Below are positions 32,951 through 46,370 of a DNA stretch of 64,000 nucleotides, piece after piece. Both the position numbers and the translations under genes were made by a program. The stretch comes from Frigoribacterium sp. ACAM 257 (GTDB taxonomy: Bacteria; Actinomycetota; Actinomycetes; Actinomycetales; Microbacteriaceae): positions 121,205 to 185,204 of the forward strand of contig NZ_VOLO01000005.1 in the NCBI RefSeq assembly GCF_007954365.1, read 5' to 3'. The stretch's first letter is position 1. Every line of letters starts with the position of its first letter. Under the pieces are notes generated by a model. The model worked only from the letters and a program-made list of their open reading frames with translations, made no database searches and was not told the origin of the DNA.

Positions 32951-35050
32951 CTAGGAGGCGCCCCGCACCTCCGCGAGGACGGCCGCGATCCGCCCCGGCA
33001 CCGACGCGTCCTGCAGGCTGGTCGTGTCGCCGAGCCCGCGCCCCTCCGAGACGTCGCCCAGCAGGCGCCGCATGATCTTGCCCGAGCGGGTCTTCGGCAG
33101 GTCGGGGACGACGAGCACCGTCGCGGGCTTCGCCACGGGGCCGATCTGGTCGGCGACGTGGGCCCGCAGCAGGGGCGAGAGCGAGCCCGACGCCGACCCC
33201 GAGAGCGCGGCCCAGACCTGCGGTTCGGAGGCGTCGCCGGCGTCGCGCACCGCGCCTCCTGCGGGGCGGGTCGCCGGGACGACGAACGCGGCGATCGCCT
33301 GCCCGGTGCGCTCGTCGGCCACGCCGACCACGGCCGCCTCGGCGACGAGGGGATGCGCGACCAGCGACGACTCGATCTCGATCGTCGAGAGGCGGTGGCC
33401 CGACACGTTGATGACGTCGTCGACGCGGCCGAGCAGCCAGATGTCGCCGTCGTCGTCGTACTTGGCGCCGTCGCCGGAGAAGAACCAGCCCTGCTTCCAG
33501 TACTTCGCCCAGTAGCTGTCGCGGTAGCGCTCGGGGTCGCCCCAGACCGTGCGCGCCAGCGACGGCGGCGTCTGCTGCACGACGAGGTAGCCGCCGGAGC
33601 CGTTCGGGACGCGCTCGCCGGCCTCGTCGACGATCGCGGTCGAGACTCCGGGCAGAGCCCGCAGCGACGAGCCGGGCTTGAGGGTGTCGACGCCCGGCAG
33701 CGGGGCCATCACGGCCGCGCCCGTCTCCGACTGCCACCAGGTGTCGACGATCGGCAGCTCGCCCCGGCCGAACTGCTCGCGGAACCAGACCCACGCCTCC
33801 GGGTTGATCGCCTCGCCGACCGTGCCGAGCAGCCGGAGCGAGCTGAGGTCGAAGTCGGTCGGCAGGCCGTCGGGGAACCACGAGGCGAGCGTCCGCACCA
33901 GGGTCGGCGCCGTGTAGTACGTCGTCACGCCGTAGCGCTCGATGATCTCGAGGTGCCGGGCAGGGTGCGGGGTGTCGGGCGTGCCCTCGTAGATCACCTG
34001 CGTGAGGCCGTTCGAGAGCGGGCCGTAGATCTCGTAGGTGTGGGCCGTGACCCAGGCGAGGTCGGCCGTGCACCAGTGCACGTCGTCGCGCTTCGCGTCG
34101 AACACGGCCCAGTGGGTCCAGCTCGCGGCCGTGAGGTAGCCGCCGCTCGTGTGCACGAGCCCCTTCGGCTTCCCGGTCGTGCCGCTCGTGTACATGATGA
34201 AGAGGGGCGTCTCGGCGTCGAACGCCTCCGGCTCGTCGGTGTCGGGCTGCGGGTCGACCACGTCGTGCCACCACAGGTCGCGGCCCTCGGTCCACGGGAC
34301 GTCGGGGGTCTCGTCGCCGGTGCGCCGCACGACGAGCACGTGCTCGACCTGGTTCTCGCCACTCACCGCGTGGTCGGCGTTCGCCTTGACCGGCACCGCG
34401 CCTCCTCGACGGAACTGCCCGTCGGTGGTGACGAGCAGCTTCGCGCCCGTGTCCTCGACGCGGAACTTCAGGGCCTCGCCCGAGAAGCCCCCGAACACGA
34501 GCGAGTGGATCGCGCCGATCCTCGCGATCGCCAGCGTCACGACGATCGTCTCGGCGATGACGGGCAGGTAGACGACGACCCGGTCGCCCTTCTCGATCCC
34601 GAGGCTGCGGAGGCCGTTCGCGGCCTTCACGACCTCGCGCTGCAGCTGCGCGTACGTGACGTCGCGCCGGTCGCCGGGCTCGCCCTCGACGTGCAGCGCG
34701 ACCTTCTCGCCGTTGCCCGCGGCGACGTGCCGGTCGACGCAGTTGACGGCGACGTTGAGGCGGCCGCCCGCGAACCAGGTCGCCTCGGGCACGGTGAGGC
34801 TGCCGTCCCCTCGCTCGGCGACGGGCCGCCACGTGTGCGCCGTGTTCCACGGCGTCGCCCACTCGAGGCGGCGGGCCTGCTCCTCCCAGAACGCGACGGG
34901 GTCGGCCGCGGCCCTGGCGTGCTCGTCGCTCGTGACGTTCGGGGCGGCGGCAGCGCCGGCGAGCGCGCTCGGCGGCGGGAACGTCCGGCGCTCGTCGAGC
35001 AGGTTCGAGATGGTGTCGCGGGCGGTCGTGGTGGTGTCGCTCGGGGCCAT
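32951..35050 (-). CDS. acs: acetyl-CoA synthetase
   Basis: 699 residues of the ANL adenylating family. The N-terminal Acs domain has FWEEQARRLEW; the P-loop motif is MYTSGTTGKPKGLVHTSGGY near 265-285; the acetate-pocket and adenylation motif is VDTWWQSETGA near 415. GRVDDVINVSGHRLSTIEIESSLVAHP is the hinge region, and the acetylatable lysine is in LPKTRSGKIMRRLL. It activates acetate with ATP and CoA. ATG 35050 was chosen. About 40 extra residues compared with the usual 650 lie in an N-terminal Thr/Ala-rich part and an Ala/Gly insertion before the last domain. Confidence 0.95.
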   Translation of the reverse strand: MAPSDTTTTARDTISNLLDERRTFPPPSALAGAAAAPNVTSDEHARAAADPVAFWEEQARRLEWATPWNTAHTWRPVAERGDGSLTVPEATWFAGGRLNVAVNCVDRHVAAGNGEKVALHVEGEPGDRRDVTYAQLQREVVKAANGLRSLGIEKGDRVVVYLPVIAETIVVTLAIARIGAIHSLVFGGFSGEALKFRVEDTGAKLLVTTDGQFRRGGAVPVKANADHAVSGENQVEHVLVVRRTGDETPDVPWTEGRDLWWHDVVDPQPDTDEPEAFDAETPLFIMYTSGTTGKPKGLVHTSGGYLTAASWTHWAVFDAKRDDVHWCTADLAWVTAHTYEIYGPLSNGLTQVIYEGTPDTPHPARHLEIIERYGVTTYYTAPTLVRTLASWFPDGLPTDFDLSSLRLLGTVGEAINPEAWVWFREQFGRGELPIVDTWWQSETGAAVMAPLPGVDTLKPGSSLRALPGVSTAIVDEAGERVPNGSGGYLVVQQTPPSLARTVWGDPERYRDSYWAKYWKQGWFFSGDGAKYDDDGDIWLLGRVDDVINVSGHRLSTIEIESSLVAHPLVAEAAVVGVADERTGQAIAAFVVPATRPAGGAVRDAGDASEPQVWAALSGSASGSLSPLLRAHVADQIGPVAKPATVLVVPDLPKTRSGKIMRRLLGDVSEGRGLGDTTSLQDASVPGRIAAVLAEVRGAS

Positions 35051-35219
35051 CACCCGAGCGTACGGAGGTGCGGGTCGGCCCCGCGGGGGAGTCGTCACGG
35101 TGCGTAACCGCGCGGCTCCCCGTCGCCTGCGGACCACGCCGCCGCTGCGCCCGCCTGCTCCTCCCTGCGCGCCGCTGCCGGCGGGCGCGCTCCTGCGGAC
35201 CGCGCCGCCGCCTCCTCGT

Positions 35220-35285
35220 GTCGCATCACGTTCCGAGCGTCACGTCTCGGCACAGCGTGACGCGATGCTCGGAACACGATGCGAC
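35220..35285. repeat. 66-bp nested palindromic repeat, copy 1
   Basis: A multi-arm hairpin: outer GTCGCAT/ATGCGAC, middle GTTCCGAGC/GCTCGGAAC, inner GTCACG/CGTGAC around a short loop. A second copy in the same orientation at 36334-36399 differs at one base (TCTCGG against TCTTGG). This copy begins the block that encloses the AbiEi-like gene; its edge is 48 bases from that gene's stop codon. Confidence 0.92.
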
Positions 35286-35289
35286 ACTG

Positions 35290-35331
35290 CCCGGGGCCCG
35301 GGGCCCGGGGCCCGGCGCCCGGCGCCCGGCG
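35290..35331. repeat. 7-bp tandem array (CCCGGGG)3(CCCGGCG)3
   Basis: Six heptamers without gaps lie between the 66-bp repeat copy 1 and the stop codon of the AbiEi-like gene. They are highly self-complementary and likely to form structure or cause slippage. Confidence 0.9.
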
Positions 35332-35333
35332 CG

Positions 35334-36278
35334 TCAGCGGCTGCACGGCACGCCCGCGCTGACGAGCAGCGTCCGCAGCCGCCGAGGGTCGCCCAGGTGC
35401 CACCAGGTGCACCGCACGAACGAGTGCACCTCGGGCCGGGCGCGGATCGCGTCCTCCCGGATCTTCTCCTTCACGACGACCTGCTCGGGCGTCAGCGAGC
35501 CTCGCCATCGGCTCTGCGTGTACTTGACGACGCCGTCGAACTCGAGCACGCAGCCCTGTTCGGGGAACCAGAAGTCGACGTGCGGGTCCCAGCGGCCGCG
35601 TCCGAGCTCGAACCGTCGTTGCAGCACGGGCGCGGGCGCGCCGAGCTGGTGCAGGAGGACCCGGGTGAGCGACTCGCCCGCCGACTCGGAGCGGTCGTCC
35701 GCGAACGCCAGGGCACGGCGGGCGCCCGTCTGGCCGCGCGCCCGCGGTCGCCGGTCGAGGGAGGCGAGCACCGCCTCCTTCGTCGTGAGCCCTCGGTGCA
35801 GAAGGTCGTCGACGACGACCGTCACCTCGTCCAGCGACCGGGTGCCGAGAGCGAGGTCGGCCGCCGTGCGTGCAGGGGTGGTGAGCGAGGTGCCGCGCAG
35901 CGACGACACCTCGTCGTCCTCGAGCGGGCCCGGGTGCTTCACGACGGCCGCCGTCGACTGAGCGCCGCGGGCGTCCGGATCGGTCACGTGCACCCGGTCG
36001 GGCCAGTCGCGGAGCACCGGCGAGCCGAGCAGCGCGGCGGCCGACAGGTGCGAGACCACGTGCCTCGGGCCGGTGCGGCCCAGGGCGGACTCGACCAGGA
36101 GCACGTGACGCCGGCGAGGAGTGAGCGCGTCCCAGTCGTGTCGCGCGACGAACGAGCCCGGATGGAGGCGCCTCAGGCGCCCTGCCGCGGCGGCGCGACG
36201 CAGCCTGGTCGCCTCGCGCGAGCCGGACCCGAGGCCCGTCGTCCGGAACAGGAGGGGGAGGGGGTCGTCGTCGATCAC
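35334..36278 (-). CDS. AbiEi-like winged-helix plus DUF559/Vsr-like nuclease protein
   Basis: 314 residues from GTG at 36278. The N-terminal 100 residues (RLRRAAAAGRLRRLHPGSFV, then RHVLLVESAL and HLSAAALLG) resemble the type IV AbiEi antitoxin-type winged helix common in actinobacteria. The C-terminal 120 residues look like a DUF559/Vsr-type PD-(D/E)xK fold: DPHVDFWFPEQGCVLEFDGVVKY supplies the Asp and Glu, with a following VKEKIREDAI helix. No AbiEii toxin gene is adjacent, so it is orphan. It is bracketed by two 66-bp hairpin repeats 48 and 55 bases from its ends. The nuclease activity is predicted only. Confidence 0.65.
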   Translation of the reverse strand: MIDDDPLPLLFRTTGLGSGSREATRLRRAAAAGRLRRLHPGSFVARHDWDALTPRRRHVLLVESALGRTGPRHVVSHLSAAALLGSPVLRDWPDRVHVTDPDARGAQSTAAVVKHPGPLEDDEVSSLRGTSLTTPARTAADLALGTRSLDEVTVVVDDLLHRGLTTKEAVLASLDRRPRARGQTGARRALAFADDRSESAGESLTRVLLHQLGAPAPVLQRRFELGRGRWDPHVDFWFPEQGCVLEFDGVVKYTQSRWRGSLTPEQVVVKEKIREDAIRARPEVHSFVRCTWWHLGDPRRLRTLLVSAGVPCSR

Positions 36279-36333
36279 GCGTCGACCCTGCCCGACTTCG
36301 CCGGAGGGCCGTGATATCTGTGCACAGGCTGCT

Positions 36334-36399
36334 GTCGCATCACGTTCCGAGCGTCACGTCTTGGCACAGCGTGACGCGATGCTCGGAACACGATGCGAC
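36334..36399. repeat. 66-bp nested palindromic repeat, copy 2
   Basis: Same element and orientation as 35220-35285, 65 of 66 bases identical, beginning 55 bases upstream of the GTG of the AbiEi-like gene. It occupies part of the 326-bp gene-free stretch 36279-36604. The remainder (36400-36604) is upstream of the subtilase gene and shows no recognisable promoter or gene. Confidence 0.92.
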
Positions 36400-36604: not shown

Positions 36605-39265
<2,661 letters not shown>

Positions 39266-39372: not shown

Positions 39373-40641
39373 GTGACCAAGGCCCCCACCGTCTACGACG
39401 TGGCCGCCCACGCCGGCGTCTCGATCGCCACCGTCTCCCGCGTCCTCCGTCGTCCCGACGACGTGCGCCCCGAGACGCGGGCCCGCGTGCTCGACTCGGT
39501 GCGCTCGCTCGGCTACGTGCCGAGCGGCGCGGCGCGGGGGCTCGCAGGTCGGCGACACGGTGTGCTGGGGCTGTTCCTCCCCGGCCACGACGGCATCGAC
39601 CTGCCCGAGCCCGACTGGGAACGCGTCGCGGACGCGAGCCGCATCCCGCTGATCGACGACCGCGAGGGGCGACCGGCGCCTCCTGCGACGACCGGCACCG
39701 AGACGGCGAACGCGGCCGCGGCCGCGACCGCGAACGCCAACGCGAACGCGAACGCCAACGCGAACGCGAACGCGAACGCGACTGCGACCGACGCCCCGCG
39801 CTCCGCGTCGAACCCCGCGAACCTGTACTTCGACGAGGTGCTCCGCGGCGCGGAGGTCGAGTCCTGGAGGCGCGGCTTCGCCCTCATGGTCGCCGCGGGA
39901 CGGGGCTCCAGCCGAGAGGTCATGCTGAACGACATCGCCGGCAGGGTGGACGGCCTAGCCGTCCTCGCGCAGACCGTGCCCGACGACCTCCTGGCGCACG
40001 TGTCGCGGCGCATCCCCGTCGTCGTGCTCGCCGACTCCCGGCCGGGTGACGAGCTCGACCACGTCGGCGTCGACAACACCGCGGGGATGCGGGCCCTGAC
40101 GGACTTCGTGCTCGGGCGCGACGGAGGCGGCCGCGTCAGGGACGTCGTCTACGTGGCGGGCCCCGGCGACTCTCCCGACGAGGCCGACCGGCACCGAGGC
40201 TTCGACGAGGCCGTCGTGGCGGCGACGGCGGCGACGGCGGCCGCCACGCGGCAGGGCCACGGCCCTGTGCGCGTCCGCGTCGAGCGCGGCGACTTCTCCC
40301 GCGAGGGCGGCAGGCGAGCCGGGGAGGCGCTGGTCGCCTCCCCGGACCCCCTCCCGCAGGCCGTCGTCTGCGCCAACGACCAGTCGGCGCTCGGAGTGCT
40401 CGACGCGTTCGTCGCGCACGGGGTGGACGTGCCGGGCCGGGTCGCCGTGACGGGATTCGACGGCATCGAGGCGGGCCGCTTCTCGACGCCGCGCCTCACG
40501 ACGGTGCGCCAGCCGATGAACGACCTCGGCCGGGTCGCGGTGCGCACCATCGTGACGCGGCTGACCGACCCGAGCGCGCCTCCTCTGCGGGTGACCCTGC
40601 CCGTCGAGGTCCTGCTCCGCGAGAGCTGCCCCGCCCGCTGA
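39373..40641 (+). CDS. LacI-family transcriptional regulator with Asn-Ala repeat insertion
   Basis: 422 residues. The N-terminal LacI helix-turn-helix is VYDVAAHAGVSIATVSRVLRRPDDV and the hinge region is around GAARGLAG. The C-terminal sugar-binding domain contains VVCANDQSALGVLDAF and GFDGIEAGRFSTPRLTTV. It probably represses the downstream transporter and beta-glucosidase genes, relieved by a glucoside. Unusually, a run of about nine Asn-Ala pairs, encoded by a hexanucleotide array, interrupts the first beta-alpha unit of the ligand domain near 112-140. GTG start at 39373. Confidence 0.9.
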   Translation: MTKAPTVYDVAAHAGVSIATVSRVLRRPDDVRPETRARVLDSVRSLGYVPSGAARGLAGRRHGVLGLFLPGHDGIDLPEPDWERVADASRIPLIDDREGRPAPPATTGTETANAAAAATANANANANANANANANATATDAPRSASNPANLYFDEVLRGAEVESWRRGFALMVAAGRGSSREVMLNDIAGRVDGLAVLAQTVPDDLLAHVSRRIPVVVLADSRPGDELDHVGVDNTAGMRALTDFVLGRDGGGRVRDVVYVAGPGDSPDEADRHRGFDEAVVAATAATAAATRQGHGPVRVRVERGDFSREGGRRAGEALVASPDPLPQAVVCANDQSALGVLDAFVAHGVDVPGRVAVTGFDGIEAGRFSTPRLTTVRQPMNDLGRVAVRTIVTRLTDPSAPPLRVTLPVEVLLRESCPAR

Positions 40642-40711: not shown

Positions 40712-40771
40712 GAACCGCGTTCCGGACCATGGACCGAGATAGATCGCGGTTCATGGTTCGGAACGTGGTTC
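40712..40771 (+). other. 60-bp imperfect palindrome with 25-bp arms
   Basis: The 25-base arms 40712-40736 and 40747-40771 are complementary at 22 positions; the other three are G-T and would be G-U pairs in a plus-strand transcript, so the RNA stem is fully paired. The loop is 10 bases. It lies after the LacI gene and before the transporter promoter, without a U-tract. It could be a terminator, an RNA processing site or another palindromic repeat (it shares GTTCCG/CGGAAC with the 66-bp family). Confidence 0.7.
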
Positions 40772-46228: not shown

Positions 46229-46287
46229 CCGGGGCCCGGCCCGCGCCTCCTTCGCGCTTTCTCCCCTTCCCGTCCAGGGCGGGTCGA

Positions 46288-46329
46288 CCGGGCCGAGGGC
46301 GGGTCCGCCACGACCCGCCCTCGGCCCGG
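46288..46329 (+). terminator. strong hairpin between transporter and glucosidase genes
   Basis: A perfect 17-bp stem (CCGGGCCGAGGGCGGGT and complement) with an 8-base loop. There is no U-tract, and the GH1 start lies 41 bases further on. It may be a partial terminator or mRNA-stabilising structure that lowers glucosidase expression relative to the transporter. Confidence 0.65.
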
Positions 46330-46370
46330 AAGACCCGCCCTCGACCCGCACACCGCAGAACGGACACCCC

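What the first reader, a model, noticed from the sequence alone, without database searches (positions are those of the whole stretch)
35220..36399. AbiEi/DUF559-like nuclease gene bracketed by near-identical 66-bp hairpins
Two directly repeated 66-bp multi-arm palindromes (65/66 identical) lie 48 and 55 bases outside a single gene combining an AbiEi-like winged helix with a DUF559/Vsr-like nuclease domain. The near-identity implies recent duplication or active maintenance. The whole 1.2-kb block looks like a compact unit: nuclease plus its own structured DNA sites. It could be a homing-like or REP-associated mobile unit, or a gene that cuts or binds these hairpins. This is the best candidate in the window for an undescribed system.
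Basis: partly seen in the sequence, partly recalled or inferred. Interest (0 to 1): 0.78.

Follow-up and report, generated by a model that had tools for sequence, protein, structure and literature searches.

The report
Nuclease gene carrying its own palindromes
A gene for a predicted DNA-cutting protein sits between two nearly identical 67-base palindromes that are also scattered alone through the genome; many relatives of the gene in other bacteria are flanked by their own, different palindromes, so the protein likely recognises these sites and would help to copy or maintain them.

Summary
In detail: two 67-bp imperfect palindromes (66/67 identical) flank one minus-strand gene. The genus is probably Frigoribacterium. 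The palindrome is a dispersed family with 15 places in this genome: this pair plus 13 solo copies.

The larger result concerns the gene family, an AbiEi-like winged-helix part joined to a Vsr/I-Bth0305I-like nuclease domain. Most members tested lie between matching palindromes, usually of a sequence particular to that gene. Left and right flanks matched better than every shuffle in 27 of 43 loci, and in 20 of 28 loci of a second, order-wide set, against 0 of 28 control genes. The palindromes often share one design: a motif repeated 19-20 nt apart in each arm. The palindromes of two further genes also form genome-wide families (about 18-40 copies).

This works like a REPtron (REP palindromes plus RAYT transposase), but the protein has no HUH domain, so it is not a RAYT. 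Likely mechanism, untested: the protein binds its palindromes and cuts there, and repair copies palindromes and sometimes the gene. Against it: palindromes are kept equally well where the cognate gene is absent, and no clean insertion junction was found. The open-access papers searched hold no description.

The parts
35219..35285 (+). left 67-bp palindrome, downstream of the gene (3' side)
35334..36278 (-). gene for a 314-aa protein: AbiEi-like part (residues about 6-194) and Vsr/I-Bth0305I-like nuclease domain (about 199-311)
36333..36399 (+). right 67-bp palindrome, upstream of the gene (5' side), direct repeat of the left one
40712..40771 (+). solo palindrome of another family, the one that flanks the related gene in G011 and G007; context, not part of the 1.2-kb unit
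   Evidence: G000:C10:161916-161975; shared with G007:416969
46276..46345 (+). solo palindrome of a third family, the one that flanks the G000 gene at C6:306179; context, not part of the unit
   Evidence: G000:C10:167480-167549

Best explanation
The block is a self-flanked unit, a gene for a predicted AbiEi-type DNA-binding protein with a Vsr-like nuclease domain lying between two copies of a palindrome, and the protein likely binds the repeated half-sites of such palindromes and would cut there, so that repair copies palindromes, and sometimes the gene, to other sites. Shown by sequence: matching palindromes on both sides of many family members, the recurrent design (a motif repeated 19-20 nt apart in each arm), dispersed solo copies, and joint change of gene and palindromes at one orthologous locus. 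Inferred: binding by the winged helix, cleavage by the nuclease domain, and spread or homogenisation by repair, as in homing. In effect it works like a REPtron with a different kind of enzyme.
For: Left-right flank match above all 1720 shuffles in 27 of 43 family loci, 0 of 28 acs-type controls, 3 of 400 cross-locus pairs; above all 1120 shuffles in 20 of 28 further loci, with 1 of 56 left-versus-distal controls above. Palindrome score 15 or more in 50 of 86 flanks versus 6 of 255 distal windows, and 29 of 56 versus 3 of 112. Best arm-repeat lag 19 nt in 27 of 49 palindromes, 3.4% when shuffled; 19 or 20 nt in 23 of 28. Goekera deserti, another order, shows the same arrangement. Dispersed families: 15 places here; 18 and 19 places in G011 and G007; about 40 in G000 and G007. 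Compensatory change in both arms of the L062 family, 0 of 500 shuffles. Same locus, flanks 94-96% identical, proteins 50% identical, palindromes different, G011 versus G000. Unit in neighbouring gaps of G000 and G003, absent from both in G007. Fold: AbiEi antitoxin plus I-Bth0305I/Vsr. AbiEi and Rv2827c bind inverted repeats in their own promoters (PMC7319586, passages).
Against: 16 of 43 and 8 of 28 loci fail the left-right test. The third-closest relative (52-54% identical, G001) has no flanking palindromes. Window-type palindromes are as well kept in G007 and G011, which lack a close relative of the gene, as in G000, and their arms hardly covary (85.1% paired versus 84.6% shuffled). 11 of 56 acs flanks also hold palindromes, and one own-left versus distal-right pair scored 102. 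No target duplication or base-precise empty site was found. Many copies are at shared sites in related species, so movement is slow at best. Protein and palindrome similarity correlate only moderately; a 98%-identical protein pair has only partly similar palindromes. The window family has a 14-nt, not 19-nt, arm repeat.
Confidence: 0.55

Rival explanations
1. Operator reading: the protein is likely an AbiEi-type autorepressor, the palindromes are its operators and the solo copies the rest of its regulon; the nuclease domain acts elsewhere.
For: AbiEi binds two and Rv2827c four inverted repeats in their own promoters (PMC7319586, passages). One palindrome lies 54 bases upstream of the window gene. 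Each palindrome holds four half-sites.
Against: A palindrome also lies downstream of the gene. In one search many solo copies follow the 3' ends of genes, several between convergent genes, where an operator has little to do. The acidic residues of the nuclease domain are invariant in 38 sequences.
Confidence: 0.2
2. Host-maintained reading: the palindromes are likely structural or termination elements of the chromosome kept by the host, and the nuclease genes merely live beside them, for example because their insertion or exchange by recombination is favoured there.
For: Copies sit at orthologous intergenic places, are equally well kept without a close relative of the gene, and in G007 13 of 14 window-type places lie within about 0.83 Mb of dnaA. 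11 of 56 acs flanks hold palindromes.
Against: The two sides of one gene match each other and differ from those of other genes in 27 of 43 and 20 of 28 loci, with 0 of 28 acs-type controls; hitchhiking does not predict gene-specific palindromes.
Confidence: 0.2
3. The palindromes are REPs moved by an unseen HUH transposase (RAYT) elsewhere in the genome, and the nuclease gene is a passenger.
For: REPs flank RAYT genes and are dispersed in other bacteria (PMC3733652, section 16 read; PMC2817692, search listing only).
Against: The flanked gene is repeatedly this nuclease family, in many genera and in one other order. The protein itself has no HUH domain hit. I did not search these genomes for RAYT genes, so this is not excluded.
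Confidence: 0.05

Closest known systems
REP elements with RAYT/TnpAREP transposases (REPtrons, TIRtrons)
   Same: One gene flanked by palindromes or inverted repeats that also occur alone in many copies; several gene-specific families in one genome (PMC3733652, section 16).
   Different: The enzyme is an AbiEi-Vsr-like fusion, not a HUH tyrosine transposase; the palindromes are about 50-85 bp rather than 20-40 bp, with a 19-20 nt arm repeat.
AbiE type IV toxin-antitoxin (antitoxin AbiEi; Rv2827c)
   Different: Carries an extra C-terminal nuclease domain; the neighbours are an acetyl-CoA synthetase and a subtilase, not an AbiEii nucleotidyltransferase; the palindromes are dispersed.
Vsr-like (EDxHD) homing endonuclease I-Bth0305I and Vsr repair endonuclease
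   Different: The DNA-binding part is AbiEi-like; the gene is not shown to interrupt a target gene; a site with and without insertion was not resolved to the base.
DUF559 / REase_MTES_1575 proteins with AbiEi_4
   Same: A distant relative (P0044, E 6.5e-5) carries PF13338, PF18741 and PF04480 above the cut-offs.
   Different: The window protein itself passes none of these Pfam cut-offs. No palindrome association of such proteins appeared in the papers searched.

Membership tests
REPtron (REP + RAYT) | gene flanked by palindromes that are also dispersed singly in the genome | tested here: met
   flanking pair plus 13 solo copies; other families
REPtron (REP + RAYT) | encoded protein is a HUH (IS200/IS605-like) tyrosine transposase | tested here: not met
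   Pfam at E up to 1 gives only AbiEi_4; the model aligns to AbiEi (6-194) and Vsr-like folds (199-311) over nearly its whole length
REPtron (REP + RAYT) | protein binds and cleaves its palindrome | not testable with these tools
   needs a biochemical assay
AbiE type IV toxin-antitoxin | AbiEi-type antitoxin fold | tested here: met
AbiE type IV toxin-antitoxin | adjacent AbiEii nucleotidyltransferase toxin gene | tested here: not met
   neighbours are acetyl-CoA synthetase and subtilase; tested for the window locus only
Vsr/EDxHD homing endonuclease | Vsr-like nuclease fold with conserved acidic residues | tested here: met
Vsr/EDxHD homing endonuclease | cleaves a gene-free allele at the site where the gene is inserted | not testable with these tools
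   needs an assay; I found no solo palindrome in one species opposite palindrome-gene-palindrome in another, and looked only at the window locus and the L062 locus

The most novel reading that the evidence does not exclude
A widespread second kind of REP-like system, unrelated to HUH transposases: AbiEi-Vsr fusion nucleases, each reading its own four-half-site palindrome through a 19-20 nt repeat, seed, homogenise and maintain families of tens of palindromes in actinobacterial genomes, and protein and palindrome evolve as a matched pair.
Probability: 0.5. Interest if true: 0.9.

Novelty: new variant of a known kind. Interest (0 to 1): 0.8.

Why it matters
Some palindromic repeat families are reported to lack a dedicated transposase (CGTC REPs, PMC3733652, passages and section 16). 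Here a non-HUH nuclease family is tied by sequence to its own palindromes, and members occur in 208 of 297 genomes and 75 of 95 genera searched across the order (presence of the gene, not of palindromes). If the proteins read these sites, each genome may offer several protein-palindrome pairs of different specificity for studying how DNA recognition changes and how extragenic palindromes arise and persist.

Tried and rejected
RNA element: Rfam at E up to 1 gave five sub-threshold hits, four of them microRNA precursors and one a Caulobacter sRNA, all below their gathering scores. Window-type arms hardly covary, so an RNA reading is not favoured for this family.

Transposon with a clean empty site: aligning the joined G000 flanks with G007, G011 and G012 left a poorly aligned middle, so no junction could be fixed. 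For L062-type copies, G000 has none at G007:341488, half of one at 515892 and a variant with compensating changes at 3087687; 3073004 could not be interpreted, and 679193 and 683644 did not map to the stretch fetched.

Decay after gene loss: no difference between G000 and G007 plus G011 (p 0.31 for pairing, 0.07 for identity to consensus).

First left-right test: its cross-locus null was spoiled by orthologous loci, and by its 99% threshold 0 of 43 passed; it was replaced by the shuffle test. The palindrome scan alone also finds ordinary palindromes (11 of 56 acs flanks), so the left-right match is the main evidence. In the acs control, 2 of 30 loci were left out: L076 (holds this unit) and L084 (different coordinates at a contig end).

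PDB sequence search: no match at E up to 1. NCBIfam: none. The genome-contig scan returned one relative, Goekera. The integron attC idea was recalled and not tested.

Literature: eight searches, (open-access PMC only), showed no title or abstract among the listed papers that ties AbiEi-nuclease genes to palindromes. Several listings were cut to the top 12-15. Passages seen: PMC7319586, PMC12306157, PMC3733652 and its section 16; other papers only as listings.

Full report
What is there. Two 67-bp imperfect palindromes lie at 35219-35285 and 36333-36399, in direct orientation and 66 of 67 identical. Each folds as one long hairpin better than all 200 shuffles. Between them lies one minus-strand gene, 35334-36278, 314 aa. 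Outside are an acetyl-CoA synthetase gene, here called acs (32951-35053, minus), a subtilase (36605-39265, plus) and a LacI-type regulator (39373-40641, plus). The genus is Frigoribacterium by inference: the 70-71% relative P0004 is named Frigoribacterium sp. PhB160, and its contig length, 572303, equals that of G003 contig C3, where the ortholog lies.

The palindrome is a family. This genome holds 15 places with it, including the flanking pair. Of 40 genomes searched by BLAST at E up to 0.001, 4 had it: G000, G003, G007 and G011. A sequence profile from 33 copies gave some match at E up to 0.1 in 16 of 16 genus genomes, but scores above 40 bits only in those four; the weak ones may be diverged copies or chance. 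The 33 copies are 15 from G000, 12 of the 13 BLAST places of G007 (606105, with an indel, dropped) and 6 of 8 of G011; G003 copies were left out. Several copies sit between the same neighbouring genes in different species. The 71% ortholog of the gene in G003 is flanked too, by one palindrome on one side and two (one weak, 25 bits) on the other.

The unit lies at different places. G000 order: acs, unit, subtilase, LacI. G003, read in the same direction: acs, subtilase, unit, LacI. G007: acs, subtilase, LacI, with no gene of this family between them. Within 1.5 kb of acs no other genus genome of the 16 showed the gene, apart from a weak 30% match over 109 residues in G001. This fits movement or two insertions; the direction of change is not proven.

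The family rule. I scanned the flanks of 43 family members: top Microbacteriaceae hits plus paralogs in G000, G003, G007 and G011. Palindrome scores of 15 or more occur in 50 of 86 flanks, versus 6 of 255 distal windows of the same loci and 11 of 56 acs flanks. The left flank matches the right flank above the maximum of 1720 shuffles in 27 of 43 loci, in 0 of 28 acs-type controls and in 3 of 400 cross-locus pairs. An order-wide profile search found members in 208 of 297 genomes and 75 of 95 genera. Of the 29 new loci it fetched, 9 from the window's own family and 20 from other families, 28 were tested (L225 dropped, flank too short). 20 pass the same test; palindromes occur in 29 of 56 flanks versus 3 of 112 distal windows. 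Some of these loci are close relatives of one another, so they are not all independent. Goekera deserti, of the order Geodermatophilales, also has palindromes on both sides (scores 18.4 and 15.1) that match each other (score 59) and have a 20-nt arm repeat. Loci were chosen by similarity to the window protein, so these rates are not an unbiased census.

One design, many sequences. The palindromes of different genes are mostly unlike in sequence but often share an arm repeat. The best internal lag is 19 nt in 27 of 49 palindromes, against 3.4% when both arms are shuffled together, and 19 or 20 nt in 23 of 28 in the second set. Of the 49, 24 reach p up to 0.05 one by one, 19 of them at lag 19. 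Where the repeat is present, a palindrome holds four copies of a short motif, two direct and two inverted. The window palindromes have a 14-nt repeat instead.

Each of three families is genome-wide. Besides the window family, the palindrome of the G011 gene L062 has 18 places in G011, 19 in G007 and 2 in G000 (my count of places from a listing cut at the end; match totals 36, 37 and 4 on both strands). The palindrome of the G000 gene L015 gives 84 both-strand matches in G000 and 79 in G007, about 40 places each; only 40 candidates per genome were scored, so these are lower bounds. In a 398-kb sample of G554, another genus, the palindrome of its gene L241 has 4 copies away from the gene. The L062 family, tested on 24 copies (19 of G007, the flanking pairs of L062 and L061, one of the window), shows compensatory change: 95.0% paired versus 90.7% shuffled, 10 pairs changed on both sides, 0 of 500 shuffles. 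The window family does not: 85.1% versus 84.6%.

Gene and palindromes change together. The L062 gene of G011 has a counterpart at the same place in G007 and G000, and its right flank also matches G003 beside gene L061. The flanks of G011 and G000 are 94-96% identical up to 7 and 76 bases from the G011 palindromes, while the proteins are 50% identical and the palindromes differ. G007 and G011 proteins are 84% identical with nearly identical palindromes. Across 19 genus proteins, identity and palindrome similarity correlate only moderately (rho 0.33, pairs not independent), and a 98%-identical pair, L011 and L056, has only partly similar palindromes.

Turnover is slow. 12 of 18 G011 places of the L062 family lie at the same site as a G007 copy; for the other 6 the G007 state is unknown, because only chosen stretches were compared. 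At five sites where fetched G000 stretches could be read, G000 has the palindrome at two (G007:416969 and 2330778), a variant at one, half of one at one and none at one.

How it likely works. AbiEi binds two 23-bp inverted repeats, and Rv2827c four, in their own promoters (PMC7319586, passages). The simplest reading is that the AbiEi-like part reads the half-sites of its own palindrome and the Vsr-like domain cuts there. Repair from another copy would then homogenise the family, restore symmetry and sometimes carry the gene between two palindromes. All of these steps are inferred. An autorepressor with a regulon, and palindromes kept by the host, are the main rivals; equal upkeep without a close relative of the gene favours the latter.

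Comparison with the known. It works like a REPtron, but the enzyme is not a HUH transposase, so it is not filed as one. The window locus is not an AbiE toxin-antitoxin pair, since the adjacent genes are of other kinds. Eight searches of open-access papers listed no description; subscription journals are mostly not covered. I rate it a new variant of a known kind, with the bolder reading given as the novel case.

Noticed in passing
G007:C1, window-type palindromes: 13 of 14 places (13 by BLAST; one more, 2506482, by profile) lie within about 0.83 Mb of dnaA on a 3.33-Mb chromosome, an origin-proximal bias.
   Followed up: partly
window 40712-40771 and 46276-46345: Two solo palindromes of other families lie in the same window, so at least three palindrome families meet here.
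   Followed up: partly
G007:C1:3087687 and the syntenic G000:C7 site: At one shared site the two species carry different palindrome variants with changes in both arms that keep the pairing.
   Followed up: partly
acs-type control loci L077-L105: 11 of 56 flanks of these control genes hold strong palindromes; whether they are terminators or solo copies of such families was not checked.
   Followed up: no
L132 (G001:C8:33994-34908): The third-closest relative of the gene (52-54% identical) has no palindromes in its flanks.
   Followed up: no
window 35286-35333: A short GC-rich run of repeated CCCGGGG-like units lies between the left palindrome and the gene's stop codon.
   Followed up: no
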